Below are positions 7,824 to 55,700 of a DNA stretch of 64,000 bases, one piece after another. Source of the stretch: Macrocystis pyrifera (Eukaryota > Sar > Phaeophyceae > Laminariales > Laminariaceae); NCBI GenBank assembly GCA_031763025.1, contig JASSKH010000003.1, forward strand, positions 10,488,734-10,552,733, read 5' to 3'. The position numbers were made by a program, and so were the translations under genes. Below the pieces are notes generated by a model that saw only the letters and a list, made by a program, of their open reading frames with translations, searched no databases and was not told the origin of the DNA. How positions within the stretch are numbered: the stretch's first letter is position 1; each line of letters begins with the position of its first letter.

Positions 7824-8473
7824 GATGGCGTTTCCACCACGTCTTTCTCAGAGCCAGCTGCGCGAAGAGGAGCAAAACCAATGGATGGACGGCCCGAGCC
7901 TAATCAGGCAGTCGACCCGCGAAACAGACGGCCGGCAACGCAGAGGACGGGCAGTTTTCAGCAGGAGGCAAGGACAACCACGGTACGAGGATGCAAGGGA
8001 ATCTGTTGAATAACATTGGTTCCGGTACGAGACACGTGCAGTTTTCGCTGGGAGTTGGTACGTCAGCGCGTCGCGGAGTCCGCATACCGTCGGGTAGGGG
8101 ATACCACATATCGACAGGCCGTGGACGGGGGGTCGGCGCGAATAGAGACCGGGAGCAGGATCAGACAACACATCGTTTCTCCTCCCCGCAGCTCAACATT
8201 GTTTTCAGCCCAGCCCCCGGTTTCCGGGGGGCCCCTTTCCGACTGGGGGCAGTTCGTACTAGCCGGAGGCCGGGGGTGGGCGGGATCACCATCAGCTCAG
8301 TGCTTTTAGCGGGAAATCGCAGGCGTCAGGGGGGGCGTCAGCCCCACCGGAGCAGCAGCAGCAGCAGCAAAAGGGATGGGCACCACAGCAGCAGCGGTGG
8401 AGGTGGGAATCGCAGCGGCCACGGCAGGGGGGGGCACTGCAGCAACAAAGGTGGGCGCCGGAGGGACGGGGGG
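7824..8473 (+). pseudogene. DIRS-like element, gag-like 5' coding region
   Basis: An ATG at 7,824 opens a 62-codon frame (MAFPPRLSQSQLREEEQNQW at its start) ending at 8,013. Other frames then carry Gln/Ser/Gly/Arg-rich sequence with a CAG run near 8,350. The low-complexity, Gln-rich composition suits a gag-type nucleic-acid-binding protein. Position immediately after the 5' leader and upstream of reverse transcriptase on the same strand supports this. There is no diagnostic motif, so the gag label rests on context. The frame is broken by stops and then by the SINE at 8,474. Confidence 0.45.
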
Positions 8474-8808
8474 TACTCGATAGGAGAGATGTACTCGATC
8501 TCATGCATGGCCGTAGTCGTATGACCATAGACCCTCGCATCCCTACAATGCCGGAACGGGGCATGTCGGGCTTTCACCGACCAGGCAGACATTGCTTGCA
8601 CCAATCGCGAAGCGCCGTGAGGTGCCCGGCGAGTCGCATGAAGGGTGAGCTGCATCCTACTAAGAACCGCTTGTGAGGCGGATTTTCTTGCATATGGATG
8701 ACAGCCTCAATGAGTTAGTTTAATATCCGGTGTAGCCACTTCCAGAGACAACAATGGGAGTACTATGTCACTGCCTCTTGGGTGCCTTACCTGGAACACT
8801 ACGTGATA
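8474..8808 (-). mobile_element. 5'-truncated SINE copy with 11 bp target-site duplication
   Basis: The copy reads from its 3' end (GTACTCGATAGGAGAG next to a G run) to an internal point at 8,808, lacking about 190 bp of the element's 5' part. CGGAGGGACGG occurs at 8,459-8,469 and again at 8,809-8,819, exactly bracketing the copy. A 5' truncation plus a target-site duplication is what target-primed reverse transcription produces. It belongs to the subfamily whose tail has two GTACTCGAT blocks, like 26,867 and 43,270. Confidence 0.85.
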
Positions 8809-8819
8809 CGGAGGGACGG

Positions 8820-9278
8820 TGGGGGGATATGTTGGGGAGAACGGGCACCGGATCTACGGCAATATCAACAGCAGCAGCAGCTGCGGCAGCAGCCGTCACG
8901 TCCAACGCAACAGCAGCGCAGGGGGGCGGCCGAAAGCCGGGGGGGGGGGTCGGGGAAGTAAGCGCGTGGCATATAGAGGGGTCAGGATCGCGGCAGCAGC
9001 AAGTATGAGCACCCGAAGTACAGTGAGGGAGGGGGGGGTGCAAGCCCTTGGGAGACGGGGGGACGGGAGCCCCAGCCGCAGCTGCAACAGAGACTGCGGT
9101 CAGAAGGACAGGTGGGCGCAGAACGGCTCTTGGGTGGGGAGACGCGGCCGGCACCACACACAGCACCAGGCAGGAGTGGAGGGTACAGGAAGGAGGCCCA
9201 CAGCAGATGTGCTTCGGGGGAATGGGAAGAAAGCCGTGAGATTGTTCGCCCGGATGGCCGCAAGGTTTGAGGGGGGGG
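8820..9278 (+). pseudogene. DIRS-like element, Gln-rich gag-like segment
   Basis: Between two SINEs the sequence resumes with CAG/CGG-rich coding-like DNA (ATCAACAGCAGCAGCAGC near 8,865). A 214-codon frame spans 8,819-9,463 but runs into the next SINE, so only the part before 9,279 can be original. No motif is recognised; the assignment comes from position in the interrupted element. Confidence 0.35.
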
Positions 9279-9774
9279 TACTCATTAGCATACTTGGCGG
9301 TAGTCGTATGACCAAAGACCCTCACATCTATCCAATGCCGGGATGGAGCACGTCGAGTTTTCACCGACCAGGCAGACATTGCTTGCACCAAGCGCGAAGC
9401 GCCCTGAGGTGTTCGGCGTGTCGCATGAAGTGTGAGCTCCATCGTACTATGAACCGCTTGTGAGGCGGACTTGCATATGGACGACAGCTTCAATGAGTTC
9501 ATTTATTTTCCGGTGTGACCACTTCCAGAGACAGTAATGGGATTACTATGCAACTGCCTCGCGGAGGCCTTACCATAAGCGCTACGTGATGCGATCATTC
9601 CCCTTGGGCGGACTAAAGGTTCTCTACCCCGCACAGATGATCTAACTTGATAGCCAGCTATGACCGACCGCAAAAAAAAAAAGTATCCTGGTTGTCTAGC
9701 TCACGTAGTGAGCGGCATGTTTTACAGTGCCGATGCCTAACGACGCCAAGCCAACCTATGTAAAATATACAGTA
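9279..9774 (-). mobile_element. SINE copy, near full length
   Basis: It carries the family hallmarks in order: TACTCATT after a G run, the CGTAGTCGTATGACC block, CATTGCTTGCACCAAGCGCG, CACTTCCAGAGACAG, a poly(A) stretch near 9,671, then GACGCCAAGCCAACC and a second G run. The element's sense is the minus strand. Confidence 0.85.
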
Positions 9775-11008
9775 GGGGGGGGAGGGGGAGAAGGATGTAG
9801 CAAGCAATCTCTGGTGGAGATGCAATGACCGAAAAGCGGTCACAAAGAAATGGTATGGGCATCGCTGCAAGGGGACGGGAAAGAACCATCGTTTCTATCA
9901 GTGGAGACCATGAGCGTGTACACCGAAACATTCATCATCAAGGCGGGGGGGGGGGTCGCGGCAGGTAGTTTTGCTAGCCAGGATCGATGTCCGGAACTTC
10001 TCGCAGAGAGGGCACGTTGGCTTCGCGGCAGGGACTCCATAGGTTACTCTAGGCCACAGGATGGAGGCCCTGTCTCTGTTGCTGATGTGTCTCACGCAGT
10101 TCGTAGCAGACGATAAATAAGACTTCCCGCAAGCATCATTGCGCTGGATGAGCAAGCTGGTCGAGCGTTTCAGGGTTGTCGCGCAAGGGGTGGGGACTTT
10201 CCACGCGCAGAACGTGCAGATGGCGGTTTCGGCGCTGTTCCAGGCATAGTTTTGTCAGTGCTTCAACGAGGAAATGCAGCAGTGGCCGCAGGAACTAGCC
10301 AGCTAGGCGCACCTACTGAAGCAGGAACCGGGAAGCTCGTTTCCCGGTCCAAGTAATATAGGTCCGATGCCCCTACCGCTGTTCGCGCGGACTCATACGT
10401 CGGTCACGGCGGCCCCCATCTACCTGGAGGACACAGCGTATGCCGGGGACTCCGTGCGGGGGAGCATAAGAAGGGACGGGAGACGGTGAGAGGAGAGGGG
10501 GGAGCAAGCGGAGGCTGCGGGGAGGGGGGTGTGTGTGCTCGGGAGGCGGGGGGGGGCAAGGGGCGAAGGGGGTTGGGGGAGGAGGGGGAGGGGGACGGGG
10601 GGGGGGGGGGGGAGGGGGGGGCAGGCGCCATATGACCGCCCCTTCCGCGACTACACCGAATATATTGCGTGCCTGCACGAGCCTAAAACTAATTTTCCGT
10701 GCAGGTGCAGGCGCCCCACAGCCTTAAGACAGCGCAGGGCGCATTTTTGCCGAGGAAGGGGGACGGGTCGCGCAAGCGCAACAGAGAGGGAGATGGGGGG
10801 GGGGGGGGGGGGGGGGGGCAGGGAAGCGGAAGGGGGGAGAAAAAGGGAGAGAGGGGAGTGACGGGCCGGTGAGAAAATGCGAACACGGGCTCCGCCGAGC
10901 AGCGGGGTCAACCATATGAGCAACCGACATTAGTTCCGAGGCAACCATGACGAGGATAACGATGGAGACTTCAGGTTGGGCTCTGGGCCAAGGCGGGGGG
11001 AAGAGGAG
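9775..11008. other. DIRS-like internal sequence with G-rich tracts
   Basis: The segment lies between two SINE copies and is presumed part of the interrupted element. Frames of 60-110 codons are present without recognisable motifs. Strongly purine/G-rich tracts at about 10,470-10,625 and 10,780-10,860 include two uninterrupted G runs. Long frames there are low-complexity Gly/Arg or Pro runs. Confidence 0.4.
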
Positions 11009-11531
11009 TACTCATTATCATGCATGGTCGTAGTCGTTTGATCATAGACCCTCGCATCCCTACAATGCCGGATTGGAGCACGTGGGGTTTCGCCGACCTG
11101 GCAGACATTGCTTGCACCAAGAGCGAAGCGCCGTGAGGTGTTCGGCAAATCACATGAAGGGTGAGCTGCATCATACCATGAACCGCTCTTGAGGCGAATT
11201 TTCTTGTATATGGACGACAGCGTCAATAAACTGATTTATTTTCCGGTGTGGCCACTTCCGGACACAGAAACGGATTCACATTGTAACTGCCTCGTAGGTG
11301 CCTTGCCATATACACAACATGTGATACGATCACCCCCTTGTGCGGAGGGAAGGTTCTCCCCGCATAGAAATGATCTAGCTCGGCCGCCAGCCGTGGTGAC
11401 CCCCCAAAAGAAAAAAAGAAAAAAAAACGGTATCCTGGTTGTCTAGCTCACGCAGTGAGAGGCGTGTTTTACAGCGTCGTCGCCAACTGACGCCAACCCA
11501 ACCTATACATATACCAGGTACAAAAATGTAG
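11009..11531 (-). mobile_element. SINE copy, full length
   Basis: It has the same block order as the other copies, starting TACTCATTATCATGCATGG and ending GACGCCAACCCAACC, then an AT-rich leader and a G run. A poly(A) stretch interrupted by G lies near 11,410. The flanks are G-rich, so a duplication cannot be defined. Confidence 0.85.
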
Positions 11532-11562: not shown

Positions 11563-12152
11563 TTGGTGGTTGCGTCAGAAAAAGGTGCGATATCCGGCCG
11601 GCGCAGAAGAGCAGAAGCGTTGGCAGGTAACACAGGGGTTATTGGGGAAAGTGTCGCCGAAGTAGAAGGCCACAACTTTCATGCCGGCTCTAGCCTCGAT
11701 CGCGGGGACGAATTCATCGCGAGTTACGACAGGGCGCCAGAGGGGAGCGGGGGTGGGATTTATGGGGCAGGTAGTACGTTGGTTGAGCAGATCGTTGACA
11801 GCACCCCACATGAGCCCGGAGCACGTGGAAGCGTTCTTTGCGGACAAGCACCGGTTTCCCGGAATCGATAATTACGCGCGTAGGGGTGCCAGTGGACGTG
11901 CAGTCGGGGGAGACCTAGTCAAGGAGCTCGACTCGCACACGAAAACCATTTAAGCGCAGAGAAATTTGACGAGGTGGCGTGGGAGAAGACAGTGGCGGAC
12001 GTTGCGGGTGGCCGAACAATCATTTTTCCGAAGGAGCAGATGGGGTAGGTACCGGAATTGCGGGTGCCGCCGGTAGAGGTCGTGCAGGAGCGGGAAAGAA
12101 TATAGTAACACATTATATTACTTTCGAGCACAGGGATGGACAGGGGGGGGGG
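11563..12152 (+). pseudogene. DIRS-like element, region just upstream of reverse transcriptase
   Basis: Frames join into LVKELDSH, then KFDEVAWEKTVADVAGG near 11,963-12,013, then VTHYITFEHRDGQG ending at about 12,143. This is the lead-in to the RT of DIRS-type elements as I recall the family. The frame is cut at 12,143-12,152 by the G run of the SINE array. It resumes at about 20,276 with VNSTTDWDETPACALAEV, which shows the array landed inside this open frame. Confidence 0.6.
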
Positions 12153-15100
12153 TATTCATTAGCATGCATGGCCGTAGTCGTATGACCATAAACCCTCGCA
12201 TCCCTACAATGCCGGGACGGAGCACATCGGGTTTTCACCGACCAGGCAGACATTGCTTGCACCAAGCGCGAAGCGCCGAGAGGTGTTGGGCGAGTCGCAT
12301 GAAGGTGAGCTTCATCCTACTAAGAACCGCTTTAGAGGCGGATTTTCTTGCATACGGGTGACAGCATCAATGAATCGATTTAATTTCTGGTGTGGTCACT
12401 TCCAGAGACAGCAATGGGTTCACTACTATGTAATTGCCTCGTGGGTGCCTCACTATGTACACACTACGTGATACGATCATCTCCCTTGTGCGGAGTGAAG
12501 GTTCTCCCCGCACAAAAAATGATCTCACTCGACCGCCAGCCGTTGTAACCGCCAAGCAAGAAAAAACAAAAAAACGGTATCCTGGCTGTCTAGCTCACGC
12601 AGTGAGTGGCGTGTTTTACGGTGTCGTCGCCAACCGACGCCAACCCAACCTATAAACACCAGGTATATTGGGGGGGGGGGTGTACTCATTATCGTGCATG
12701 GCCGTAGTCATATGACCATAAACCCTCGCATCCCTACAATGCCGGGACGGAGCACGTCAGGTTTTCACCGACCAGGCAGACATTGCTTGCACCAAGCGCG
12801 AAGCGCCGAGAGGTGATGGGCGAGTCGCATAAAGGGTGAGCTGCATCCTACTAAGAACCGCTTTCGAGGCGGATTTTCTTGCATATGGGTGACAGCATCA
12901 ATGAATCGATTTAATTTCTGGTGTGATCACTTCCAGAGACAGCAATGGGTTCACTACTATGTAATTGCCTCGTGGGTGCCTCACTATGTACACACTACGT
13001 GATACGGTCATCCCCCTTGTGCGGAGTGAAGGTTCTCCCCGCACAAAAATGATCTCACTTGACCGCCAGCCGTCGTAACCGCCAAACAAGAAAAAACAAA
13101 ACGGTATCCTGGCTGTCTAGCTCACGTAGTGAGAGGCGTGTTCTACGGTGTCGTCGCCAACCGACGCCAACCCAACCTACAAATACCAGGTATATTGGGG
13201 GGGGGGGGTGTACTCATTATCGTGCATGGCCGTAGTCATATGACCATAGACCCTCGCATCCCTACAATACCGGGACGGAGCACGTCAGATTTTCACCGAC
13301 CAGGCAGACATTGCTTGCACCAAGCGCGAAGCGCCGTGAGGTGTTGAGGGAGTCGCATAAAGGGTGAGCTGCATCCTACTAAGAACCGCTTTCGAGGCGG
13401 ATTTTCTTGCATATGGATGACCGCATCAATGCATTGATTCAATTTCTGGTGTGGTCACTTCCAGAGACAGCAATGGGGTTACTATGCAATTGCCTCGTGG
13501 GTGTCTCACCATATACACACTACGTGATACGGTCATCCCCCTTGTGCGGAGTGAAGGTTCTCCCCGCACAAAAAATATCTAACTTGACTGCCAGCCGTGG
13601 TAACCGCCAAACAAGTAAAAAAAACGGTACCCTGGCTGTCTAGCTCACGCAGTGAGAGGCGTGTTCTACGGCGTCGTCGCCAACCGACGCCAACCCAACC
13701 TATAAACACCAGGTATATTGGGGGGGGGGTGTACTTATTAGCATGCATGGCCGTAGTCGTATGGCCATAGACCCTCGCATCCCTACAATGCCGGGACGGA
13801 GCACGTCAGGTTTTCACCGACCAGGCAGACATTGCTTGCACCAAGCGCGAAGCGCCGAGAGGTGATGGGCGAGTCGCATGAAGGGTGAGCTGCATCCTAC
13901 TAAAAACCGCTTTAGAGGCGGATTTTCTTGCATATGGGTGACAGCATCAATGAATCGATTTAATTTCTGGTGTGGTCACTTCCAGAGACAGCAATGGGTT
14001 CACTACTATGTAATTGCCTCGTGGGTGCCTCACTATGTACACACTACGTGATACGGCCATCCCCCTTGTGCGGAGTGAAGGTTCTCCCCGCACAAAAATG
14101 ATCTCACTCGACCGCCAGCCGTCGTAACCGCCAAACAAGAAAAAACAAAACGGTACCCTGGCTGTCTAGCTCACGCAGTGAGAGGCGTGTTCTACGGTGT
14201 CGTCGCCAACCGACGCCAACCCAACCTACAAATACCAGGTATATTGGGGGGGGGGGGTGTACTCATTATCGTGCATGGCCGTAGTCATATGACCATAGAC
14301 CCTCGCATCCCTACAATACCGGGACGGAGCACGTCGGGTTTTCACCGACCAGGCAGACATTGCTTGCACCAAGCGCGAAGCGCCGTGAGGTGTTGAGGGA
14401 GTCGCATAAAGGGTGAGCTGCATCCTACTAAGAACCGCTTTCGAGGCGGATTTTCTTGCATATGGATGACCGCATCAATGCATTGATTCAATTTCTGGTG
14501 TAGCCACTTCCAGAGACAGCAATGGGGTTACTATGCAATTGCCTCGTGGGTGTCTCACCATATACACACTACGTGATACGGTCATCCCCCTTGTGCGGAG
14601 TGAAGGTTCTCCCCGCACAAAAAATATTTAACTTGACTGCCAGCCGTGGTAACCGCCAAACAAGTAAAAAAAAAACGGTACCCTGGCTGTCTAGCTCACG
14701 CAGTGAGAGGCGTGTTCTACGGCGTCGTCGCCAACCGACGCCAACCCAACCTATAAACACCAGGTATATTGGGGGGGGGGTGTACTTATTAGCATGCATG
14801 GCCGTAGTCGTATGGCCATAGACCCTCGCATCCCTACAATGCCGGGACGGAGCACGTCGGGTTTTCACCGACCAGGCAGACATTTGCTTGCATCAAGCGC
14901 GAAGCGCCGAGAGGTGTTGGGCGAGCCGCATGAAGGGTGAGCTGCATCCTACTAAGAACCGCTTTAGAGGCGGATTTTCTTGCGTATAGATGACAGCATC
15001 AATGCATTGATTCAATTTCTGGTGTGGTCACTTCCAGAGACGGCAATGGGTCTAATACGTAATTGCCTCGTGGGTGCCTCGCCATATACGTACTACGTGA

Positions 15101-15296
15101 TACGGTCATCCCCCTTGTGCGGAGTGAAGGTTCTCCCCGCACAAAAATTATCTAACTTGACCGCCAGCCGTCGTAACTGCCAAAAAAAAAAAAAAAAAAC
15201 GGTACCCTGGCTGTCTAGCTCACGTAGTGAGAGGTGTGTTTTACGGCGTCTTCGCCAACCGACACCAACCCAACCTATATATATATCAAGTATATT
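12153..15296 (-). mobile_element. Array of six head-to-tail SINE copies
   Basis: Six near-complete copies begin at 12,153, 12,683, 13,211, 13,732, 14,260 and 14,783. Each is about 515 bp, and neighbours are separated only by 9-15 G residues. All share CATTGCTTGCACCAAGCGCG (one variant), the CACTTCCAGAGA block, CTAGCTCACGCAGTGAGAGG and CCAACCCAACCT. Copies 2+3 and 4+5 match as a pair 1,049 bp apart (GGTGATGGGCGAG in 2 and 4, GGTGTTGAGGGAG in 3 and 5), so a dimer was duplicated. The element's sense is the minus strand. No protein is encoded. Confidence 0.9.
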
Positions 15297-15761
15297 GGGG
15301 GGGGGGGGGGGGGGGTACTCATTCGTTGCTTGCCTTAGTCATTTGACCATTGACCACGCATCCCTTTCGAGACGGAGCACCGTTCCTACTCCTAATAGAG
15401 ACACCAACAATTGGGCGCTCATTACGTTGTTTCCATATATGACATAGAAATGTTTTGCTAAACTTATCCCCTTCCTGTTTGGTCCCCTGTGGCCACCATC
15501 TATCTCCCAGGATAGCGATCGTTTTCTCGCTGCTATTCATTGTATCAAACTCCTCCATGTCACATTCGTCTATTTTCCTCATCTCATCTTCTAACACATC
15601 CCGTTACTCCTTGTATATTTCACATTCTCCTACCATGTGAGTTCTACCCTCTATTCCTTTACACAAGGGCACATCTGTGCGTCTACTTCCTCCTCCTCCC
15701 GGCTACTGGTGTACCTCTTTCTTCTTTCTGGCAGGTCCAGGTCCCCTACACGAAAGCAGTT

Positions 15762-16475
15762 TCAGCGTTTTCGCGAAGTCCATTGGGCCGGGCCATGCAA
15801 ATACGTTTTCATTCCTATTCCTTCCCTCAATCCCCCGTATATCTCTAAGTATTTTTCCGATTCCACCTTGTTTCTTAGTGCTAGCCTTTCCCTTCTTTCT
15901 ATCCTTTCTTCTACTTCTGCCGTGTACCTCCCAAACTTCCTAGCGGACATCATCTCTACTTGGTTTCCCCCTAGATCCTTCCATACTTTCTCAACTACGC
16001 CATCCCACCTTATTCCAGCTCGCCCTTTTGTTACTTTCTCCCATACAGCTCTATCAACTATGGCTGGCAACCTCTTTTTTGGCATGTTCCTTATTTTATA
16101 TTGCCAGTTCAACTTTCTCATGTCTCTATTTGTCTTGAGTGGGCGCATTCCCAGTTCTGCTCTTAATACTGTATTGCTAGTCGTACGTGAGCATCTTAGG
16201 ATTTTTTTAGCTGCTGTCATTTGTACTGTTTCCAACTGTTTTACGAGTTTCGCGTTCCCTTCCCATACTTCTCCTGCATATTCTAGCTTTGGTACTATCA
16301 CATTCATCAAGATACATCTCTTAATCCTAGTGTCAAGGTTCGGGTCTGTTAGGATCGCATCCATCTTGCCTACTTGTGCCTTACCCTTTCCTATTACCTT
16401 TGCTATATGTGTATCCCAAGGGCAGTCTTTTGATATCTCTACGCCAAGGTATGTATACTGGTCTACGATCGGCAA
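15762..16475 (-). pseudogene. LINE-2 C-terminal domain
   Basis: A 237-codon minus-strand frame continues the RT polyprotein after a one-step frame change at about 16,476. It includes DQYTYLGVEISKDC, KRCILMNVIVPKLEYAGEVW and KILRCSRTTSNTVLRAELG, which are typical of the region after the RT palm in many LINEs. It ends RKR at 15,762 in this frame. About 450 bp of 3' region follows before the poly(C) tail. No zinc knuckle was seen. Confidence 0.8.
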
Positions 16476-16476
16476 T

Positions 16477-17300
16477 TCATCTTCTCCCCACTTCCAACTG
16501 AAATTTACCGGGTTTTACCTTATCTTCGTTGCAAACAACTACTGCGCGTTTCTTGACGTTCGCCGTCACCCTCCATTTCCTGGTGTATTCTAGCGCCTTC
16601 TCTTTTTGTTTCTGCAATCCTTCGGGTGTTTCTGATATCCCCACGAAGTCATCCGCAAACATCAATCCCGACACCGTATCTTCCCCTACCGTGACTCCCT
16701 GCCTTGCTGCCTCGACTGCTACTATCAGGTCGTTAATGTATATCTTGAATAAGTTAGGTGACAACGTACATCCCTGTGCAACTCCTTGTAAAATATCAAC
16801 ATACTTTGATATTTCTCCGTCCAGCATCACAGCACTTCTCGCACATTCCGTCATCTTTTTCATCATTCTCCACATCTTTCCCCTGATTCCTATTTCCCAC
16901 AGTTTTTTCCACAACCCATTTCTCCATACTGTGTCGTAGGCTTTCTGCACATCTAGAAAGAAACAGTACGTTGTTAGTCCCGCGTCTTTCCTACCTTGAA
17001 TAATCTTACCTAAGGTGTACACATGATCTACGCAGCTACGGCTTGGCCTAAACCCTGCTTGAACTTCGCTTACTTTGTCTTCCTTCTCCAACATCGTTCC
17101 CATTCTATCGTTCAAAATCTTACAAAATGTTTTGCCTACTGTGCTTAGTAGCGTTATCCCTCTATAGTTCCCCGGGTCAGCCTTATCTCCTTTCTTGAAT
17201 AAATTTACTACAACTCCTTCTCTCCACCTCCTACGTGCGTACTAGTTTTTCCATATCCAGTTATACAACATAACCATCATGGTAAGCATTTCTTCTCCCC
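16477..17300 (-). pseudogene. LINE-2 reverse transcriptase
   Basis: A 212-codon frame starting at 17,115 contains GFRPSRSCVDHVYTL, FFLDVQKAYDTVWR (motif A with catalytic Asp), GVAQGCTLSPNLFKIYIND (motif B) and GLMFADDFVGI (motif C, catalytic DD). The preceding motif DPGNYRGI lies just upstream in another frame, so at least one frameshift separates the N-terminal part. All three catalytic aspartates are present. The family would reverse-transcribe its own RNA and, if tail recognition applies, SINE RNA ending in the same tail. Confidence 0.88.
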
Positions 17301-17516
17301 CGTACTTCAGAAATTCATTCACTATTTGGTCTGCCCCTGCTGCCTTTCTATTCTTAAGTTTAGCGACACACTTCTTTACTTCTTCCCTTGTGAACTCTCT
17401 CTGTAACCCTCCCGATCCACTGTCTTCCCTTTCTGATGTATCTGCGTTCGCCTCTGCCCACGCGTTGATTTCCTTCTCGAATTCTGCATCGAACGTTTCG
17501 TTGGCTGTGGGTGTTC

Positions 17517-18905
17517 CTAGCTTCGGTAATGCTCTACTAGTACCTCCCTTTTCCCCTTCGAACTACTGACTATTTTACCGTTCTGTGCTCTTAGAGTAGC
17601 TATTCCCGTGTCTGCCTCTCCTGCTTGTTTGCCAAGTATCCCTTTTATCCCTACCCACATCTGCTTCATCCCGCCCTCAAAGTCTTCATTCGTTTTATTT
17701 ACTACGTCTTTCCATATCCCTTTCTTCTTCTTCTCTACCATCTCTTTTACTTTCTTTCTAGCTATGTATTCCTCCCACCCTGTCGAAGTTTTACTCGATG
17801 TATACCTTGCGTGTGCCTTTCTCCTTGCTCTTATAGCCTCTTTCACTTCTTCATCCCACCATTTTATCGCTCTGTTGCATACTATCAACTTAATCCCTAT
17901 TACTTTACTTGCTATGGTCTTGACCAACTGCTCCCATCCTTCTATTATCCTAGCTCCTGCATCATCCCTTTCTATATCGTTCCTTGTTGTACCTATTATT
18001 TCCAACAGCTCGGAAAATTTCTCTGCATTTTTGACCATCTCTTCTTGGAACTCTTCCCGTTTCTCTTTTACTTCTAGTTTATCTATTCTCCATCGATACA
18101 ATTTCCTACCTCTTCTATGTTTGATAACTCTCGTCTGTTGACTGTCTGTCCATATTAGACAGTGATCCGTAGTTCCTATGTCCGCTGCGCATACATGTAG
18201 TTCAGTTTCCTTACCACTTCCATTTTCTACTACTATAAAGTCAAGGATAGAGCTTTCTCCCTTTTGTATGCACTGTCTAATCCATTCCGGTTCTGCCTTT
18301 TTTACACTGTCGTTCAACGTTTTCATCTCGTTGTGCTTGAGGAACTTCAACATCTCTTCCCCATTCTTATTCTTTGTTACTTCCCCATATTGTCCAATGT
18401 TCTCATTCAGTTTGCTTGCCCCCCCAATTCTTGAGTTAAAATCTCCCAGTAGTACTACTTCTCCTTGGCCCTTGTACTTCTGTACATCTACTGCTACTTC
18501 TCCGAACTTCCTCTGTATATCTTTTATCGTATTCTTCGACTCTGGGGGCATATCTATGTTTCCTAAGAAGTAATTTTTCGCTCCCCGCTCCCCTGGAATC
18601 TTAATCCATATGCTTTCGTCGAATTTAGTGTCTTTGATGACCTCTATTATGTCACACAGGTATCTTTGACTAGGAACCCCACACCCCCCCCCCTATTCTT
18701 GCTATTCTGTCCCTTCCTTTTTTTCCCTATCCATGCGTACTCTCCAACTTTGAATCCTATCTCCCCTCCTTCTTTCTCCCACGACTCTTGAATTCCCACT
18801 ATGTCTAGGTCGGGCTTACTTACTTGTTCGGCAATTTCGATTAGTTTGCGCTCTTCCGCGGCGAAGCCACATACGTTCCATGATCCTATTCTCAGCCTCC
18901 TTTTC
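17517..18905 (-). pseudogene. LINE-2 endonuclease region
   Basis: This minus-strand region would nick target DNA for priming. Near 18,890 a frame begins with RIGSWNVCGFAAEE, and IVGIQESWEKE follows near 18,800. These are the first two motifs of apurinic/apyrimidinic-type endonucleases (WN and QE). A 344-codon frame from 18,551 holds VVLLGDFNSRIGG, the conserved GDFN motif, and TDHCLIW, the SDH-like end motif. The downstream part (to 17,517) is basic and Lys/Glu-rich. A frameshift separates the two parts. Confidence 0.8.
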
Positions 18906-19275
18906 GTTTCACTATCCGCTCTAGTCTTGCCTGTTATTTCTCCGTTGTCGCCACGAGTATTTCTGTGTCTCTTCTTTGAGCATTATTTTCGTTTCCGTTC
19001 CTGTTCTTGTCTGCTTGTTTTGCGCCCCTATGTTTCTCCCCCATTCCATTTGAGCCACTTGCTGTTTCCTGCCTCCCCCTACCTTCGTTCACCCTAGAAC
19101 TACGTCTTAGTTTTGCTATTCCATCAGCTATACATACTCTCCATCCTAGTCTTCTAACCCATGCCGACACTTTTTCTGTCTCTATCCTCTGCCACTCAAT
19201 GCTCGCTTTCAGCTTCAGAGTGACTGGAAAGTGTTCTCCCTCTCGTTCTACGTTTCCTATTGCAAAGCAATACAG

Positions 19276-20275
19276 TACTCATTATCGTGCATGGCCGTAG
19301 TCGTATGACCATAAACCCTCGCATCCCTACAATACCGGGACGGAGCACGTCGGGTTTTCACCGACCAGGCAGACATTGCTTGCACCAAGCGCGAAGCGCC
19401 GTGAGGTGTTGGGCGAGTCGCATGAAGGTGAGCTTCATCCTACTAAGAACCGCTTTAGAGGCGGATTTTCTTGCATATGGATGACAGCATCAATGCATTG
19501 ATTTAAGTTCTGGTGTAGCCACTTCCAGAGATAGCAATGGGTTCACTACTGTGTACCTGCCTCGTGGGTGCCTCACTATGTACACACTACGTGATACGAT
19601 CATCCCCCTTGTGCGGAGTGAAGGTTCTCCCCGCACAAAAATGATCTCACTCGACCGCCAGCCGTCGTGACCGCCAAACAAGAAAAAAAAAAACGGTACC
19701 CTGGCTGTCTAGCTCACGCAGTGAGAGGCGTGTTCTACGGCGTCGTCGCCAACCGACGCCAACCCAACCTGTACATACCAGGTATATTGGGGGGGGGTGT
19801 ACTCATTATCGTGCATGGCCGTAGTCATATGACCATAAACCCTCGCATCCCTACAATACCGGGACGGAGCACGTCGGGTTTTCACCGACCAGGCAGACAT
19901 TGCTTGCACCAAGCGCGAAGCGCCGTGAGGTGTTGGGCGAGTCACATGAAGGGTGAGCTGCATCCTACTAAGAACCGCTTTAGAGGCGGATTTTCTGCAT
20001 ATGGATGACCGCATCAATGCATTGATTTAAGTTCTGGTGTAGCCACTTCCAGAGATAGCAATGGGTTCACTACTGTGTAGTTGCCTCGTGAGTGTCTCAC
20101 CATATACACACTACGTGATACGATCATCCACCTTGTGCGGAGTGAAGGTTCTCCCCGCACAAAAATGATCTCACTTGACCGCCAGCCGTGGTAACCGCCA
20201 AAAAAAAAAAAAAAAAAAAAAAACGGTTCGCTGGCTGTCTAGCTCACGCAGTGGGAGGCGTGTTTTACAGCGTCG
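19276..20275 (-). mobile_element. Two more SINE copies closing the array
   Basis: Copies begin at 19,276 and 19,800, separated by nine G. The second ends at about 20,275 inside GTGTTTTACAGCGTCG, lacking roughly the last 45 bp of the family's 5' end. It was therefore 5'-truncated on insertion and is probably the oldest member of the array. The first copy directly abuts the 5' end of LINE-2. Confidence 0.85.
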
Positions 20276-25385: not shown

Positions 25386-25835
25386 AGGACTAAATGGGGC
25401 TGAAAATATAGGTGTCACTCTGTCCGGCAACCCAAAGACCGCTCGGATACTGTTATAAGTGCCCGAACGGTCCCTATGCACGTCCGTACAGAGTGGTAGA
25501 GAAACGCTGTCTCGTGAGGGGAGGTGTTCCACTAGCGGAGCGCGACCGGTAGAGAGGTCGACCTCGTTTCGTTATGTGTTGATGGGGGAGGCGTTAACAT
25601 GCAGGGAAAGGGGCGGGGCAGCCCCTTCCCCCTCCCCTCCCTCCTGCTATTTTGTGTAGGGGTAGGGGAGGCGTACGCATGCGGGGGGGCAAGGGGGCAG
25701 TGAAGCCTACCTTCCCCCCCCCGTCCCCAATTCCGCAGCTCTTCAGATCATATATAGCATCTTTCGTGGAAGTGGCAACCAAAGAGGAAGGTTATCGTTG
25801 GGGCAACCTGGTGTCAGGGGCAACCCGAAATTTCG
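25386..25835 (+). mobile_element. 3' region of the DIRS-like element
   Basis: The non-coding sequence beyond the recombinase contains GAACGCGACCGGTAG-like and GGGGCGTACGCATGCGGGGG words that recur at 29,497-29,690. It therefore belongs to the element's 3' end. About 25,788-25,830 (GAGGAAGGTTATCG, GGCAACCTGGTGT) resembles 7,435-7,480 left of the element, consistent with a terminal repeat. The exact end is not set. Confidence 0.5.
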
Positions 25836-26660: not shown

Positions 26661-26866
26661 AAGTACACAGCACAGCAAACGGTCGGACAGGGCGAGCAGA
26701 CAAACACGCACGCACGTACGCACACAAGGTCGTATGCCTGCCCGTCTCCTGTCCGTCTGATGCTCTGTTGTCTAATACCGAATCAGGGCCCGAAGAGGCA
26801 AAGTGTCCTGTGCTTTTGTCGGGGCGAGAAGAGGGGGGGGGGGGGGGGGGGGGGGGGGGGTACTCG

Positions 26867-27391
26867 ATAGGAGAGATGTACTCGATCTCATGCATGGCCG
26901 TAGTCGTATGACCATAGACCCTCGCATCCCTACAATGCCGGGACGGAGCATGTCGGGTTTTCACCGACCAGGCAGACATTGCTTGCACCAAGCGCGAAGC
27001 GCCGTGAGGTGTTAGGCGAGTCGCATGAAGGGTGAGCTGCATCCTACTAAGAACCGCCTGTGAGGCGGACTTGCATATGGATGACAGCTTCACTCAGTTA
27101 GTTTAATTTCCGGTGTAGCCACTTCCAGAGACAGCAATGGGAGTACTATGTAACTGCCTCTTGGGTGCCTTACCTTGAACACTACGTGATACGATCAATT
27201 CCCTTGTGCAGAGTAAAGGTTCTTTACTTCGCACAAATGATCTAACTAGACGACCAGCTGTGGGCGACCGCCAAAAAAAAAAAAAAAACGGTACCCTGGC
27301 TGTCTAGCTCGCGTAGTGAGCGGCATGTTTTACAGTGTCGTTGCCAACCGACGCCAACCCAACCCATATATAATATATTTAATCTATGGGG
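26867..27391 (-). mobile_element. SINE copy, full length, behind a long poly(G)
   Basis: The copy follows a G run of about 30 at 26,832-26,861 and starts TACTCGATAGGAGAGATG. It then shows all family blocks, including a poly(A) of 16 at about 27,273 and GACGCCAACCCAACCC, ending in an AT-rich leader and nine G. It represents the subfamily with a doubled GTACTCGAT tail. Confidence 0.88.
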
Positions 27392-27595: not shown

Positions 27596-27816
27596 GAGAG
27601 GGTAGACGTCAAGAGCCGCGGTTGCCGTGGTTGCGCGTCGCAAGTTTTTCACCTCGTTCGCGAGATAACCTGTCACGTTATAACAGACCACACTACTGAC
27701 TGCCAGCGCCTCGAAAACGCGCGAGGAAAAAAATCGTTTTTCGTCTCCCACGGCGTCGCTTTTTAGCCTACCACATGAGAGCGCCCCACCACCCTCCCCT
27801 CAGCCTCCGACTATAT

Positions 27817-27864
27817 GTATGGTCACGATTACGGCCATGCATGACACGAGTACACCCCCCCCCC
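27817..27864 (+). mobile_element. Very short SINE 3' tail
   Basis: TATGGTCACGATTACGGCCA, then TGCATGACACGAGTAC and poly(C), matches only the last 45 bp of the SINE, here with its sense on the + strand. It is an extreme 5' truncation. Confidence 0.7.
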
Positions 27865-33732: not shown

Positions 33733-34420
33733 GGGAGAAAGTAACAAAAGGGCGAGCTGGAGTAAGGTGGGATGACGTAGTTGAGAAAGTATGGAACGAT
33801 ATAGGGGGGAAACCAAGAAGAGGTGATGTCCGCCGGGGAGTTTGGGAGGTACAAGGCAGAAGTAGAAAAAAGGATACGAATAAGGGAAATGGCTAGCGCT
33901 AAGAAACAAGGTGGAATTGGAAAAACCCTTACAGATATACGGGGGATTGAGCGAAGGAATAGGAATGAAAACGTATTTGCACGGCCCAATGGACTTCGCG
34001 AAAACGCTGAAACTGCGCTTTCGTGTAGGTGACCCGGACCTGCCAGAAAGAAGAAAGAGGTATACCAGTAGCCGGGAGGAAGAAGTAGATACACAGGTGT
34101 GCTCGTGTGACAAAGCAATAGAGTAGAACTCATGTAGTAGGAGAATGTGAAATATACAAGGAGGAACGAGATGTGTTAGAAGAGGAGATGATGGAAATAA
34201 ACGAATGTGACATGGAGGAGTTTGATACACTAGACAGCTACGAGAATACGATCGCTATCCTAGGAGATGGATGGTGGCCACAGGCGGTCAAACAGGAAGA
34301 GGGTAAGATTAGCAAAAATGTTTCTATGTAATATATGGAAACAGCGAAAGAGCGCCCAATTGTTGGAGGTGTCTCTATTAGGAGTAGGAACGGTGCTCCG
34401 TCTCGGAGTTGTTATCGAGC
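33733..34420 (+). mobile_element. LINE-2 3' fragment
   Basis: The fragment matches the C-terminal and 3' region of LINE-2 (TGGGATGACGTAGTTGAGAA, GGAGGAGTTTGATACACTAG, GGAGTAGGAACGGTGCTCCG). It breaks off inside the shared tail at CTCCGTCTCGG. Its left end is flush with a poly(C) run. Confidence 0.8.
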
Positions 34421-34479
34421 TCGAAAAATCGGTCCGGGGAAGGAAGGGGTGTACGGTTGGGGGGGGGAGGGGGAGGGTG

Positions 34480-35010
34480 TACTCATTATCATTCTCATGC
34501 ATGGTCGTAGTCGTAATGACCATAGACCCTCGCATCGCTACAATGCCGGGACGGAGCGCGTCGGGTTTTCACCGACCAGGCAGACATTGCTTGCACCAAG
34601 CGCGAAGCGCCGTGAGGTGTTGGGCGAGTCGCATGAAGGGTGAGCTGCATCCTACTAAGAATCGCTTTCGAGGCGGATTTTATGGCATATGGATGACAGC
34701 ATCAATGAATGATTTAATTTCTGGTGTGGCCACTTCCAGAGACAGCAATAGGTTTACTATGAAACTGCCTCGTGGGTGTCTCACCCTATACACACTACGT
34801 GGTACGATCATCCCCCTTGTGCGGAGTAAGGGCTCTCCCCGCACAAAAATTATCTAACTTGACCGCCAGCCGTGGTAACCGCCAAAAAAAAAAAAAAAAA
34901 AAAAACGGTACCCTGGCTGTCTATTAGCTCACGCAGTGAGAGGCGTGTTTTACAGCGTCCTCGCCAAACGACGCCAGCCCAACCTATATGTGTACCAAGT
35001 ATATAATATA
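34480..35010 (-). mobile_element. SINE copy, full length
   Basis: It begins TACTCATTATCATTCTCATG and contains the usual blocks, with poly(A) of 21 near 34,884. It ends with CGCCAGCCCAACCTATATG, an AT-rich leader and eight G. Orientation is opposite to the LINE-2 fragment beside it. Confidence 0.85.
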
Positions 35011-43100: not shown

Positions 43101-46100
43101 GGCGGCGGAATCTCGGGCGCTTGGTCGCCATCGGTAGTCCTGCTCAGCACCCAGGTCCTCCGGCGGGACAATAGGCTAAACCGATAGGTGTCAAGGTGGG
43201 GTAATGGGGGTCATACGTGTCGGGAGGCGGTACAAGCGCGGGGGGTGAGAGGGAGCGGGGGGAGGGGTGTACTCGATAGTAGAGACGTACTCGATCTCAT
43301 GCATGGTCGCAGTCGTATGACCATAGACCCTCGCATCCCTACAATGCCGGAACGGAGCATGTCGGGTTTTCACCGACCAGGCAGACATTGCTTGCACCAA
43401 GCGCGAAGCGCCGTGAGGTGTCCGGCGAGTCGCATGAAGGGTGAGCTGCATCCTACTAAGAACCGCTTGTGAGGCGGACTTGCATATGGATGACAGCTTC
43501 AATGAGTTAGTTTAATGTCCGGTGTAGCCACTTCCAGAGACAGCAATGGGAGTACTATGTAACTGCCTCTCGGGTGCCTTGCCTTGAACACTACGTGATA
43601 CGATCAATTCCCTTGTGCAGAGTAAAGGTTCTTTACCTCGCACAAATGATCTAACTCGACGACCAGCTGTGGGCAACCGCCCAAAAAAAAAAAAAAAAAA
43701 AAAAAACGGTGCGTTGAATGTCTGGCTCGCGTAGTGAGCGGCATGTTTTACAGTGTCGTTGCCAACCGACGCCAACCCAACCCATATATAATATGTATAT
43801 AATAGGGGGGGGGGGGGTACTCATTCGTTGTTTGCCTTAGCCCTTTGATCCTTGACCACGATTCCCTTTCGAGACGAGGGGGATTACACAGAATACGAGA
43901 GGGAAATAAGGGTTCGCATCTTCCTTTACAAGGACCAGCTATTGGTGCGATGGACGCCACTACATACTTGCACCACCAAGAGAGCATTCGGGGAAAAAAA
44001 AAAAAACGAAACAACGATACGTACCCCTCGGTAACGTCGAGTTGAGACGGGCGTTTTCGAAGCGCGGTGGTTAAGCTCCCGGACTGCGATAACCTCGCGG
44101 CTTGTTTGAGTCTCTCCACAAGGCTTTCTCGCAGGTTTTCCCCTCAACTGCTTTGAAAACATGTTGTAAAAAAAACTGCTGCAAATTCGTGCAGTGTTAT
44201 TATAATGCTGCTGCGTCATTCGAATCATGATCCATACCGTTGCTTGTTTCTAAAACGCCTTTGACACTCCTTGCTTCAATGTCTCAGACACTTCTTGCTT
44301 CAATGTCTCCCCCCCTCACCCTAAGCTTCCTCGGCGAATCGTCTCCGGCGATAGTGTCGAACCGCTCCAGCAGGTCCTGGAAATTCATCGCCGGCAGCTG
44401 TTCGGTGTCCTCCGAGGCTCCCCCGTACCAAAAAAGGGCGTTGTACAAACTGGGCGGCGCCGCGCGCCGGGGGGGGGGGGGGGGGGTACTCATTTGTTGC
44501 TTGCCTTAAGTCATTTGACCATTGACCACGCATCCCTTTCGAGGCCGAGCACCGTTCCTACTCCTAATAGAGACACCTCCAACAATGGGGCGCTCATTAC
44601 GTTGTTTGCATATATTACATAGAAACGTTTAGCTAATCTTATCCTCTTCCTGTCTGGCCGCCTGTGGCCACCATCTATCTCCTATGAGGCGTGGGGGGGG
44701 GGGGGGAGGGATACTCGATAAAAAAAAAAACAGACGTCAAAGCGGAGAGGTTTCCGACTTACCAAAAAGCGGACTGTTGTACGTACACACCACAGAATCA
44801 AAATCAATCGCGATTTTATCGGTGCGACGTCCGGCACCGCAGTGGTTGGCTTCATTTCTTCCGCGCAGACAGCACCATTCGTTTGCCGCTATGCACATAG
44901 CTTTCAAGTATACGCCACGCGCGTCTACCGGATACCACCCCTCTAACTTTCCCTTCCTTGCCATTTATTGCCTAATCGACACGAGTCGAACCGAATCCCC
45001 ACCCCTCCGCACAAACTACAACCTCAAACACGCTGCGCGAGCGCGTTCCACCAACACCCTGCACTACCCGCCGACCAAAACCCCTACCCCCGCCTTCTGC
45101 ACCACCACCAGCTGTTGATATTCGACGCACCTCCTCGCCCACGAAAACACGCCGCTCTGGTTCGCCTGCTGCGCGTCCCTGAACCAACCCGCGTTCCACT
45201 GGGGAGACGGCGGATCGACACGGCGCTGCTCGCCAGCCTCGGGTGCCGGGGCCCTCGCGTGTCGACGCCGCCGCGGCTGCAGCTCGCCATCGGCCGTGTA
45301 GTCGCCGTCGCCATCGCCATCGCCATCGCCATCCCCATCTCCCCCGAGGTAGACTTCCTCCCTATCGTTGACGCCGTTGCCGGAGCTGCCGGGGGGGGAG
45401 CGGTGTGCATGACGTCGGGTGGCAAGAGACGGAATGTGACCGGGTAGGACAGCAGGACGTGAGACGTGACGAGGGGTGGAGATGCTGGTCACGGTGTTGT
45501 GACACCAGTCACGTTATTTAGCCCACTAAAAAGTAGCGTCAGCTTGTTTCAATCGCCGATCCCTACAGACCGCCGACTTTCAGAACATGATTACTGCTGC
45601 ACCACTGCCGTGCTTTGTCGACCTGCAACCGTCTTCCCCCCGGCGGGCAGACACGAATCAAACAGCCTGTGGGCATCTGAGCATTCGCGCATTTTGTCAA
45701 AAGATATGACACCAGCACTTACACAAACGCATCATACATGACGCTCCCCGTCCGTATGCGATGCTTCCTGTTCAAGCAGTTCATGAGGTAAGCAAGTATC
45801 ATATCATACCAGGAGTTGTTACTGCCTTTACACTGCCGGTGTCACAAGTAAAGAACTAGCAGAAGCCGACCTCTCACCGGAAGTAATCCCTTCCCTGCTC
45901 CCCTAAACTGAGGTCCTGCTCCTCCTGCTCCTCCTCCTCTTCCTCTTCCTCCTCCCGCCTCCTCCTTCTCCGTCCCCCGCCACTGTTCCCTTTCCGGGCT
46001 GCAGGGACGTTGCTCCATTGGATATCCTCCCAAGGAGCCGTACGACGATTTCGCGCGCCCCCTCTCCCGCCATCTCCATCGTCATCGTCACCATCGCTAT

Positions 46101-52700: not shown

Positions 52701-55700
52701 CCGGATTCGAGCCCCGCCGCCTATGGGTACCCCCCTACACTGTAGATGAGCTGCAGCGCTTCGGGTGTTTTCCACACCAAACGCGAACTAACCACCCCCC
52801 CCCGATACCTTAGCAAAACGTTTCTATGTAACATCTGGAAGCAAAGTAATGAGCGCCCGACTGTTGGAGGTGTCTTTAATAGGAGTAGGAACGATGCTCC
52901 GTCTCGAAACGGGATGCGTGGTCTATGGTCTAATGACTAAGGCAAGCACCAAATGAGTACGCCCCGCCCCCCCCCCCCCACAATCGTCAAGCAAGAAAAC
53001 TGTACGCAATGACGCGCTCGCTCCTGGTACTGTTCTTCTTCCTCCTCGAGCCAGGTGACGGATCGCGCGGGCGGGGAGCAGTGGGTGGTGCTACGAAGGT
53101 TCAGACAGTTCGAGGAGCTGCACGAAGAGCTTCTGGAGGTGTTCTCTAGGGAACCGGACGCGAACGCTTACGTGCTGCCTCCCAAAGAGGTGCGGAGCGC
53201 CGAATGCGACTGCTGCTGTTGTCGTTGTTGGTTGTGTTTTTTGTGCTGTTGATGGTACTGGTGTTGGTGTTGTTTGTGTTTACATTTGTTTTGGTTGTTG
53301 GTGTTGATGATGTTGATATTGCTGCTGCTGTTGTTGCTTTGCTGCTGCTGCTGCTGCTGTTGTTGACGTTGTTTTTGTTTTTGTTGCTGTTGGTGTTCCT
53401 GCTGCTGTTGTTCCGGCTGCTGTTGCTGCCACTGCTGCTGCTGCGGGGCTCTTTTTTTGGTGCTGATTGTGCTGTGTACTTGCACCGTGTCGTGCTGCCG
53501 TAGCTGCTACTGTCGCGTTTTTTTTTTGCTCAACATGCTAAAGCTGCTGATGATGCTGTAACGATTGCCTCTATATGGTGGACATATTGTAGCGACTACC
53601 ACCACTGAACATGCTGTAACATACTGCTGCGGCCACCGCCACTACTCGACATGCTGTGACGACTCTCCTGCGTACTGAACATACCCACTCGGTGAGCAAC
53701 TCAAACTGCCGCCTTACTTTTAAGAAACGCATGAGAAGAAGAAAAAAAAACGTTTCATCGTACTCTGCACTCTGTACATACAGCAGTGTGTTATTGGTGT
53801 TTTCTGCCGGTATGTTAGCACAGTTTGTATATTTTGCTGCTGTTCACGTGATAGCAACAATCGATAGTGATTTTTGGTATGAATTGCTGCCGGGCTGTCG
53901 CGGTGGCGACGCGTGACTGTGCAGGTGTTCGGGGGCAGGCACGGAGGCGTCATTGTGAAACGGCTGAAGCTGTTGAAGGTCTACCTCGACCGCCTCGTCA
54001 CTTGCAGGTTGGTGTGCTTGTTCATTGGTCATCGGTGAATAGTAGAGTGTGCTGGTACGAGTACTTTCCCTGAGACCTGCCAATACCGCACTATGTATTT
54101 GTATTGATTATTAGAGTCAACATATCTTGGATGATTGATGGTTAATAAACGATCGTACGCAAAACACGTGGCTCTACCAATATATTGGAAACAAATAGTA
54201 TTGGCTTCGCCAACTATTACGGAGGACCATAGTAAATAGGGCAAGATATTGTTAGTAAAAATAAGGAAATATATGGGTTTTTGTGTGTACCGTAGGTCCT
54301 ATTTATTATGGTCCCACGCAATACCAGCATACCTGGTACTGGTACTCGTATGCCGGGTATGATATGATCTTTTGTGTTTCGGCACCACACAGACGGTTCT
54401 AGTGATTGGTGCTTGGTGCTGCTCGTTCCAACGCAATATCTACTATTATACGACTAATTAAATAGCTGTTGCTGTGTTGTTGTTGTTGTTGTTGTTGTTG
54501 TTTTTTATCCTCCGGCGGATTGGTAAAAATAAAGCTTAAGCTCACCACACTTCCACGTTCCAATTTCGTGTCGTGTGTCAATTTAGCCCATAGCTCCCGT
54601 TGCGACATCAGAACAGGCTGTTGTTACCCCTGGAGTTTGGGCAGGTTGACCCGACCTGACCCCCGAGAGGAGCAGGTGCGGTGGAGATAGCCACCCGGCT
54701 GTGTTGTTGTTATGTTTCGCCGGCGTAGTGCCGAGGCCGCCTTTTTGGCAGACCTTAAGAAGCGCCGGGACGACTTAGAGTACAGCAGATTTCGCGCCAT
54801 GTTGCTGTTTTTTTTTTTGTTCCGGCTGTTTCTTACGGACCAGGTATGCGATTTTTTTTTTTCAAAGTTAATTTGTTTGTTTCGGACAGTTGTTGGTGTT
54901 TCAGATCCGGGAGGATAAGCGAGTCAGTCGTGCTCTTGTCGCAATGAGTTACCCTACCCTCCCAGAGTTACCTCGATTGAAAAAAGAAAAAAACTTATCC
55001 TCCCGTCGAAACTTTATCGAGTTCCTGCCCGGTGTGTTTATCATTTCCGCTATTTTTCAATAGAAACAAAACTGAATGTACTTCCCAGTGCGAAATTTCG
55101 GACCGTTCGAATATTTTTTTGTGCTTTCGCTTTGTTTCTACGCACTCGAAAAATTTGGAAATGGCATGATAGACATGTACTTGTCGTGTATAGGACGGGC
55201 AAAAACTCAAAATGCTTCGGTTTTTTTATTGTCGGGTGCCTCTGGCAGGGTAGGGGAGCTCATTGCGACAGGAACACGACTGCTTTGCTCTCCTTCCGGG
55301 TCTAAATTGTCAATAACTGTCTAAAGCAAACGAATCGAACTGGCTTAAGAAACAGCTATAGGGAAGCAGGGCGTGGTGAAAATATAAATTGATGCCTGGT
55401 GCTGGAATATGGTATCGATTTTTTTTTGCGGGGGGGATGTGGGGACACAGGCGCAGAAGAGGGGTCCCCTTTTACAAGGTTTGGGAAACGCACGTTTTTC
55501 TGTGGTTTGTTTTTGTTCTTACTCGTATCGCTTTTACTTTCCAACTCGACTTGTGGGAGGTTGCACCTCCACCGGCAGTCTGGAGCAAAAGCCGTGGTCA
55601 CAGGTGTCTGTATTCTCTTCTCCGCCTTCCTCCCGCAATACTGCTGGAAGTGGCCAAGTGGCCACACCAGAAAATATATTAACCCATTGAAACTGCCATC

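What the first reader, a model, noticed from the sequence alone, without database searches (positions are those of the whole stretch)
12153..20275. LINE and SINE sharing a 3' tail that ends in poly(C)
Compared on their sense strands, the last about 65 bp of LINE-2 (15.3-19.3, 29.7-32.5 and 52.8 kb) and of the SINE align. Both have GCTCCGTC, then GGGATGCG, TATGGTCA/AATGGTCA, GACTA-GGC-A-GCA and GAGTAC, followed by a run of C. SINE copies are truncated only at the other end (8,474, 19,800, 27,817, 55,690, 63,699). That pattern and the 11 bp duplication at 8,459/8,809 indicate target-primed reverse transcription started at this tail. Tail-sharing LINE/SINE pairs are known in other eukaryotes; a poly(C) tail is unusual.
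Basis: partly seen in the sequence, partly recalled or inferred. Interest (0 to 1): 0.8.

Follow-up and report, generated by a model that had tools for sequence, protein, structure and literature searches.

The report
Kelp retrotransposons that target C-runs
In what is almost certainly the giant kelp genome, a self-copying DNA element and its small hitch-hiker share the same 3' end and tend to insert into runs of the letter C, including the runs beside earlier copies, so copies stack head-to-tail in one orientation.

Summary
Confirmed: the LINE and the SINE-like element share their last 66-74 bp (E about 1e-10); the tail motifs occur thousands of times in the window's genome, which matches giant kelp by size and contig count. 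C-rich tracts also lie just upstream of 5' ends, truncated ones included: 35 of 58 genome-sample and 9 of 16 window copies, against a 1.0% sample background; G-rich 0. Genome-wide, 947 of 1293 minus-strand SINE heads have C6 8-38 nt upstream (background 1.9%). LINE1 interrupts an array junction of which six others, uninterrupted, hold only the C-run. So much of the poly(C) is target; the elements add a linker base plus a few C (G in 67 of 89 listed LINE ends). Seventeen of 74 copies are nested in another copy's C-run, none antisense. The LINE frame runs into the shared tail, but only 4 of 13 pieces stay open to its final TGA. Best reading: target-primed reverse transcription at C-runs; mechanism inferred. 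A new variant of known kinds.

The parts
15316..19270 (-). LINE1, the longest LINE copy, probably 5' truncated; frame broken in this copy
   Evidence: interrupts an array junction
16480..17241 (-). reverse transcriptase piece of LINE1
   Evidence: Pfam RVT_1 E=1.4e-29; PDB best hit R2 protein E=4.7e-18, LINE-1 ORF2p also found
17520..18692 (-). endonuclease-like piece of LINE1
   Evidence: Pfam Exo_endo_phos_2 E=6.9e-4, 19.9 bits, below the 27.4 gathering score
15315..15380 (-). LINE1 copy of the shared 3' tail; in this copy also the end of the LINE frame, stop TGA inside AATGAGTAC
15297..15315 (-). C-run (19 C on the sense strand, counting the last C of GAGTAC) between LINE1 and the next SINE unit
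   Evidence: uninterrupted equivalents
12153..15296 (-). six head-to-tail SINE units (about 525 bp) separated by C10-C12 runs, with a dimer period of about 1,049 bp
12143..12152 (-). C-run at the 3' end of the array
19275..19788 (-). SINE unit directly upstream of LINE1; its GAGTAC joins the LINE 5' end without a C-run
19798..20275 (-). outermost SINE unit, 5' truncated, no C-run at its 5' end
8474..8811 (-). 5'-truncated SINE with clean 11-bp target-site duplication (8459-8469, 8809-8819)
9278..9774 (-). full-length SINE, C8 directly upstream
11005..11530 (-). full-length SINE, C-rich tract directly upstream
26861..27387 (-). full-length SINE, C9 upstream, C28 downstream (counting the last C of GAGTAC)
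27811..27853 (+). short 3' SINE fragment followed by A + C11
29697..32474 (+). LINE2, inserted in the C-rich tract of repeat repE; itself interrupted at about 30092-30691
25527..25788 (+). uninterrupted repE copy: paralogous empty site for LINE2, C-rich (C9) at the insertion point
33733..34405 (+). LINE fragment, C25 directly upstream, 3' tail lost
34479..35010 (-). SINE with CCCCCTCCCCCCCC on both sides
43818..43878 (-). short LINE tail copy; the SINE 43270-43804 sits in its C-run
43270..43804 (-). SINE nested in the LINE C-run, same orientation
44487..44687 (-). LINE 3' fragment, C14 upstream, C18 downstream (counting the last C of GAGTAC)
52810..52960 (+). LINE 3' fragment, C9 upstream, G + C-rich downstream
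55645..55880 (+). SINE fragment, C21 downstream (counting the last C of GAGTAC), no C-run upstream
63701..63801 (-). 5'-truncated SINE, C-rich tract directly upstream

Best explanation
A non-LTR retrotransposon (LINE) and a non-autonomous SINE-like partner share a 66-74 nt 3' domain (GTGCTC...GAGTAC) and insert preferentially where the sense strand has a run of C. Inferred steps: the LINE enzyme binds the tail RNA, nicks the G strand of a C-run, and the freed ...GG-3' end pairs with the short C stretch that follows GAGTAC(G/A) at the RNA 3' end and primes cDNA. The copy then lies in or at an edge of the C-run, so C-runs flank it on one or both sides. Because the new copy keeps a C-run after GAGTAC, it is itself a target; later copies enter it in the same orientation, giving head-to-tail arrays such as 12143-20275. 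Shown: shared tail, enrichment of C-runs at both ends, family-specific linker base, nesting and its orientation, RT domain. Inferred: the RNA end, the nick, the priming, and that the LINE mobilises the SINE.
For: Tails: E about 1e-10; scores beyond shuffles; LINE tail pattern 2656 times genome-wide, control 0; GAGTACCCCC 11,060 against control 808. 5' C-runs: 11 of 17 hand-checked window junctions (two of them nested) against 1.3% background. Genome sample 35 of 58 against 0.99%, and 6/56, 2/56, 2/54 at -100, -200, -300; G-rich 0 of 58; excluding nested copies, SINE-full 5/8, SINE-truncated 15/34, LINE 9/15. 947 of 1293 minus-strand SINE heads have C6 8-38 nt upstream, background 1.9%. 272 minus-strand LINE copies cut within 3 nt of the tail's 5' boundary follow CCCCC (no baseline obtained). 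Empty sites: six array junctions for LINE1; repE for LINE2, left flank 86% over 202 bp, right flank matched or beaten by 5 of 4,938 random placements. Encoded end: linker G in 67 of 89 distinct listed LINE places that have C5; SINE linker A in 21 of 52, single G in none; among short runs after the linker four C is commonest, 12 of 67 tails. Nesting: 17 of 74, antisense 0 of 74.
Against: Some 40% of copies show no 5' C-rich tract by the criterion used: 23 of 58 in the sample, 7 of 16 in the window, LINE1 among them. 3' flanks are C-rich in 45 of 58 and 10 of 16, not all. Clean target-site duplications are few and hard to score in C-rich flanks: 11 of 74 of 8 bp or more against 8.2 expected from shuffled pairings, 6 against 2.6 for 11 bp or more. 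The sample was seeded on GAGTACCCCC, so its 3' counts are biased. Deduplication was imperfect (L031 and L050 are near-identical), and the genome-wide counts include segmental duplicates (visible in the listings). The genome-wide G-run control for SINE heads never returned. Full-length SINEs could carry 5' C as part of the element: the target duplication in L065 leaves seven C between it and the SINE start.
Confidence: 0.75

Rival explanations
1. The poly(C) is a true 3' tail, made by copying an RNA with a long C tail or by slippage of the reverse transcriptase; C-runs at 5' ends arise only because many copies land in the tails of older copies.
For: Linker base plus C after GAGTAC is family-specific; the 8.5-kb SINE has three C outside its target duplication; 17 of 74 copies are nested in tails.
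Against: Leaving out nested copies, 29 of 57 still have C-rich 5' flanks (5/8, 15/34, 9/15) against about 1% background; the repE empty site has its own C-rich tract. Short C stretches of 3-5 occur where the next bases are not C.
Confidence: 0.15
2. The arrays come from tandem duplication or template jumping rather than repeated insertion; the C-run is just part of the repeat unit.
For: The array has a dimer period with 97-99% identity over 300-nt stretches of alternate units, so unequal exchange has probably amplified it. RNA-to-RNA jumping would also give head-to-tail order with tails between.
Against: Nested pairs of different families and lengths (LINE in SINE tail, SINE in LINE tail) occur at other places; 5' C-runs also border copies with no recognised upstream element.
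Confidence: 0.2
3. C-runs mark fragile or accessible sites (for example strand breaks or four-stranded G structures), and the enzyme has no sequence preference of its own.
For: The window is rich in C/G runs: 73 runs of 7 or more in 64 kb.
Against: Breaks should be used in either orientation, yet upstream G-rich flanks are 0 of 58 and antisense tails 0 of 74. Priming by the G strand on C-ended RNA could still impose orientation, so this is not excluded.
Confidence: 0.15

Closest known systems
Stringent-type LINE/SINE pairs with a common 3' end (for example Chlamydomonas SINEX-3_CR with L1-1_CR, about 80 nt shared)
   Same: SINE 3' end derived from the partner LINE 3' end; simple repeat after the tail (passages of PMC3747384)
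   Different: The examples in those passages end in poly(A) or other short repeats; here the end is G/A plus C, copies sit at C-runs, and the LINE frame runs into the shared tail
Microsatellite-targeting LINEs (Dong in (TAA)n, Togen in (TG)n, telomeric TRAS)
   Same: Insert into pre-existing simple repeats (passages of PMC4640811, and PMC2887409)
   Different: Target here is a C homopolymer run, preference is incomplete, and a SINE-like partner uses the same target
RTE-clade LINEs of Lepidoptera
   Different: That paper finds no sequence-specific insertion; clade of the kelp LINE not tested, single intact ORF not seen
Zepp of Chlorella and Drosophila telomeric HeT-A/TART (recalled, no call)
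   Same: Head-to-tail arrays of non-LTR elements joined at their 3' tails
   Different: Those have A-rich tails and telomeric location; here arrays form at C-runs and include a SINE

Membership tests
Non-LTR retrotransposon (LINE) | reverse transcriptase of the non-LTR type | tested here: met
   RVT_1 1.4e-29; best PDB relatives R2 and LINE-1 ORF2p
Non-LTR retrotransposon (LINE) | AP-type endonuclease domain | tested here: inconclusive
   Exo_endo_phos_2 E=6.9e-4 but 19.9 bits against a 27.4 cut-off
Non-LTR retrotransposon (LINE) | 5' truncation with constant 3' end | tested here: met
   20 kept LINE copies of 52 to 3,954 nt, counted from the 3' end
Non-LTR retrotransposon (LINE) | target-site duplications of variable length | tested here: inconclusive
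   four persuasive cases; 11 of 74 of 8 bp or more against 8.2 expected
SINE | 3' end shared with a LINE | tested here: met
SINE | head derived from tRNA, 5S or 7SL RNA with Pol III promoter | tested here: inconclusive
   ARAGORN 0 genes in the window; Rfam no match at gathering nor E up to 5 on 12600-13800. It may be a SINE-like retroposon with an unrecognised head
Microsatellite-targeting LINE | insertions concentrated in one simple repeat with a pre-existing target | tested here: met
   empty sites. A preference, not exclusive
RTE clade | very short 3' UTR ending in simple repeats | tested here: inconclusive
   the frame runs into the tail; open to the final TGA in 4 of 13 pieces, stopping five codons earlier in 3; no intact full ORF seen
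RTE clade | RT phylogeny with RTE elements | not testable with these tools
   no reference set of LINE clades available
Stringent LINE/SINE pair | RT needs the tail RNA structure | not testable with these tools
   a common fold is predicted for the two consensus tails but covariation does not exceed shuffles

The most novel reading that the evidence does not exclude
A LINE/SINE pair that breeds its own target: the RNAs end in a shared tail (in the LINE overlapping the end of its reading frame) followed by G/A plus a few C, the enzyme uses C-runs primed by their G strand, and every insertion leaves a C-run that attracts the next copy in the same orientation, so the pair and its poly(C) tracts spread together and build arrays through the kelp genome.
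Probability: 0.4. Interest if true: 0.75.

Novelty: new variant of a known kind. Interest (0 to 1): 0.6.

Why it matters
It gives a natural test of how a LINE enzyme matches an RNA 3' end to a DNA target: a homopolymer target, a defined linker base, and two RNAs (LINE and SINE) using the same rule. It suggests how poly(C)/poly(G) tracts and tandem arrays can spread in a brown-algal genome. If the LINE's last codons do overlap the tail that the SINE borrowed, one sequence may serve both protein and RNA recognition.

Tried and rejected
Searches of viral contigs and prokaryote genomes for the tail, RT or SINE core found nothing, as expected for a eukaryote. Rfam and ARAGORN gave no head for the SINE. 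Tail RNA structure: LINE and SINE consensus tails fold alike, but six real tails have z from -2.0 to 0.0 and two of the six (window 19275, 11008) take clearly other folds; 88.1% of cells pair against 26-41% when slid, yet neither pairing nor covariation exceeds shuffles, and RNAalifold gives a weak consensus. Suggestive only. Codon-position test of the LINE 3' end: no bias (upstream 600 nt: shared changes 22/20/18, single 43/42/38; tail 3/1/3 and 3/0/2), so no sign of protein-level selection among these copies. Target-duplication statistics are weak. Genome counts did not complete: G-run control for SINE heads, tail-to-head nesting (112, 114, 119, 122, 125, 130), baseline for LINE tail starts (124, 128, 129, 133, 135, 137). 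Dropped before counting: 161 copies reaching within 30 nt of the 3' end became 78 after removing near-duplicates and those with under 30 nt upstream, then 74 after removing L028:8624, L040:1074, L062:1024 and window 30692 (overlaps or internal pieces). Of 19 nesting hits, two (L062:834, L035:308) were judged spurious by eye; window 44682 is doubtful but kept. For the fold alignment, 37 anchored tails were found, others had no anchor, and 34 were aligned, leaving out L041, L052 and L053. Outputs were cut, so other empty sites may have been missed.
Full report
What was checked. The window lies in a 537,376,219-bp assembly of 223 contigs. The published giant kelp (Macrocystis pyrifera) assembly is 537 Mb in 223 contigs with 50.37% GC (passages of PMC10498591), so the host is almost certainly giant kelp; this is an inference from size and contig number.

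The shared tail is real. Compared on sense strands, the last 66-67 nt of the LINE align to the last 74 nt of the SINE, from GTGCTCCGTC to GAGTAC. In the window BLAST the LINE/SINE matches fall at the two 3' ends, with E about 1e-10 in the best cases. Local scores of 238 LINE x SINE tail pairs have median 28 (minimum 12), against median 12 and maximum 26 for 9,520 shuffled pairs. The LINE tail pattern occurs 2,656 times genome-wide with control 0; GAGTACCCCC occurs 11,060 times against 808 for the reversed pattern.

The LINE is a non-LTR retrotransposon: RVT_1 at 1.4e-29 and a sub-threshold endonuclease match, nearest solved relatives R2 and LINE-1 ORF2p. Its frame runs into the shared tail. 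Of 13 distinct LINE 3' pieces printed, four (window LINE1, L040, L032, L070) are open through the tail to the TGA inside AATGAGTAC; LINE2 is open but has lost that TGA; three (L014, L068, L076) stop five codons earlier; five have another stop in the tail. In the 100 LINE tails listed, 96 have TGA at that place (my count), whereas 9 of 24 SINE rows in the alignment have C in place of the T (my count). That fits a stop codon kept in the LINE and free to change in the SINE, but the codon-position test showed no bias. So the tail being coding is likely, not shown.

Much of the poly(C) is target. In the window, 11 of 17 hand-placed 5' junctions have at least 10 C in 12 nt within 30 nt upstream, against 1.3% of positions outside elements. 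I then fetched 69 stretches of the genome (20, 20, 20, 9); eight further search loci were not used in the counts. With the window, 74 copies remained after deduplication. In the 58 from the genome sample, 35 have C-rich 5' flanks; at 100, 200 and 300 nt further out it is 6/56, 2/56 and 2/54; G-rich 0/58; background 0.99% of 419,418 strand-positions. Window copies by the same rule: 9/16. Without nested copies it is 5/8 full-length SINEs, 15/34 truncated SINEs and 9/15 LINEs. Truncated copies matter most, because their C-run should not belong to the element's 5' end. Genome-wide, 947 of 1,293 minus-strand SINE heads have C6 8-38 nt upstream, taking one match per head on that strand as the listing shows; in held non-element sequence it is 1.9%. 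The plus-strand figure (6,312) counts every C6 start and is not used. These genome counts include segmental duplicates.

Empty sites. LINE1 interrupts a SINE-SINE junction of its array: GAGTAC, then LINE1, then the C-run and the next unit. Its joined flanks align to six other junctions of the array, which hold only the C-run. LINE2 interrupts a repeat (repE) in its C-rich tract: the left flank matches the uninterrupted copy at 86% over 202 bp, and the right flank resumes at the expected place with a score reached by 5 of 4,938 random placements.

What the elements encode after GAGTAC. Of 1,317 plus-strand LINE tails, 1,043 are followed by zero or one base and CCCCC. In the 89 distinct places among the 100 rows listed, the base is G in 67, none in 19, A in 2, T in 1 (my count). 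In held copies the SINE linker is A in 21 of 52 and absent in 25; the LINE linker is G in 7 of 18 and absent in 11 (that sample was seeded on GAGTACCCCC and so favours no linker). Among C stretches of up to 11 after the linker, four is the commonest length (12 of 67 tails; 26 of 67 have 12 or more). The 8.5-kb SINE has three C between GAGTAC and its 11-bp target duplication.

Nesting. Seventeen of 74 copies start in the C-run of another copy's tail, and none follows an antisense tail. This explains why the array is head-to-tail with a LINE inside it, though unequal exchange has probably also amplified it (97-99% identity over 300-nt stretches of alternate units). LINE copies pile up at 52-63 nt (13 of 20), that is, tail-only copies, though short matches are also what BLAST can just detect; 272 minus-strand cases start within 3 nt of the tail boundary after CCCCC. 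This may mark a reverse-transcription stop at a folded tail, but the fold itself is only suggestive.

Comparison with print. Tail-sharing pairs and stringent 3' recognition are reviewed in PMC3747384 (passages); microsatellite-specific LINEs in PMC4640811 (passages); very short 3' UTRs in RTE elements in PMC2887409 (passages). Searches for a poly(C)-ending or poly(C)-targeting LINE/SINE returned no paper or listings with no such title (most of these lists are capped). The library is partial and the term poly(C) cannot be searched, so absence from print is not established. The word SINE was found 0 times in the main text of the giant kelp paper.

Verdict. Observation confirmed; interpretation corrected: a tail-sharing pair that prefers C-runs as target, with a short encoded C end, rather than simply elements with a poly(C) tail.

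Noticed in passing
23578-23689, 30585-30683, 54215-54326, 60295-60396, 61375-61485, 61622-61733: A roughly 112-bp palindrome-like repeat with inverted ends (GGGGGACCATAGT...), possibly a small DNA transposon; one copy lies inside LINE2.
   Followed up: partly
30099-30578: An element with inverted ends (159 bp, 76% alike) interrupts LINE2 next to the 112-bp repeat.
   Followed up: no
49329-50165 and 62269-63103: Two copies of an 840-bp repeat at 78.5% identity, without C-runs at their ends.
   Followed up: no
35856-36338: Long TAC trinucleotide array.
   Followed up: no
G000 contig C125, 1487071-1610402: SINE heads recur, many about 11 kb apart in one orientation, which suggests a large tandem array carrying one SINE per unit.
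   Followed up: no
LINE copies in L026, L027, L031, L032, L041, L048, L050 and window 43818-43878: Many LINE copies consist of little more than the 52-63 nt tail (13 of 20), truncated near the tail's 5' boundary.
   Followed up: partly
window 8474-8811, 26861-27387, 43270-43804: A SINE subfamily with an extra 18-nt piece that repeats GAGTAC at its end (GAGTACATCTCTCCTATCGAGTAC or a close variant).
   Followed up: no
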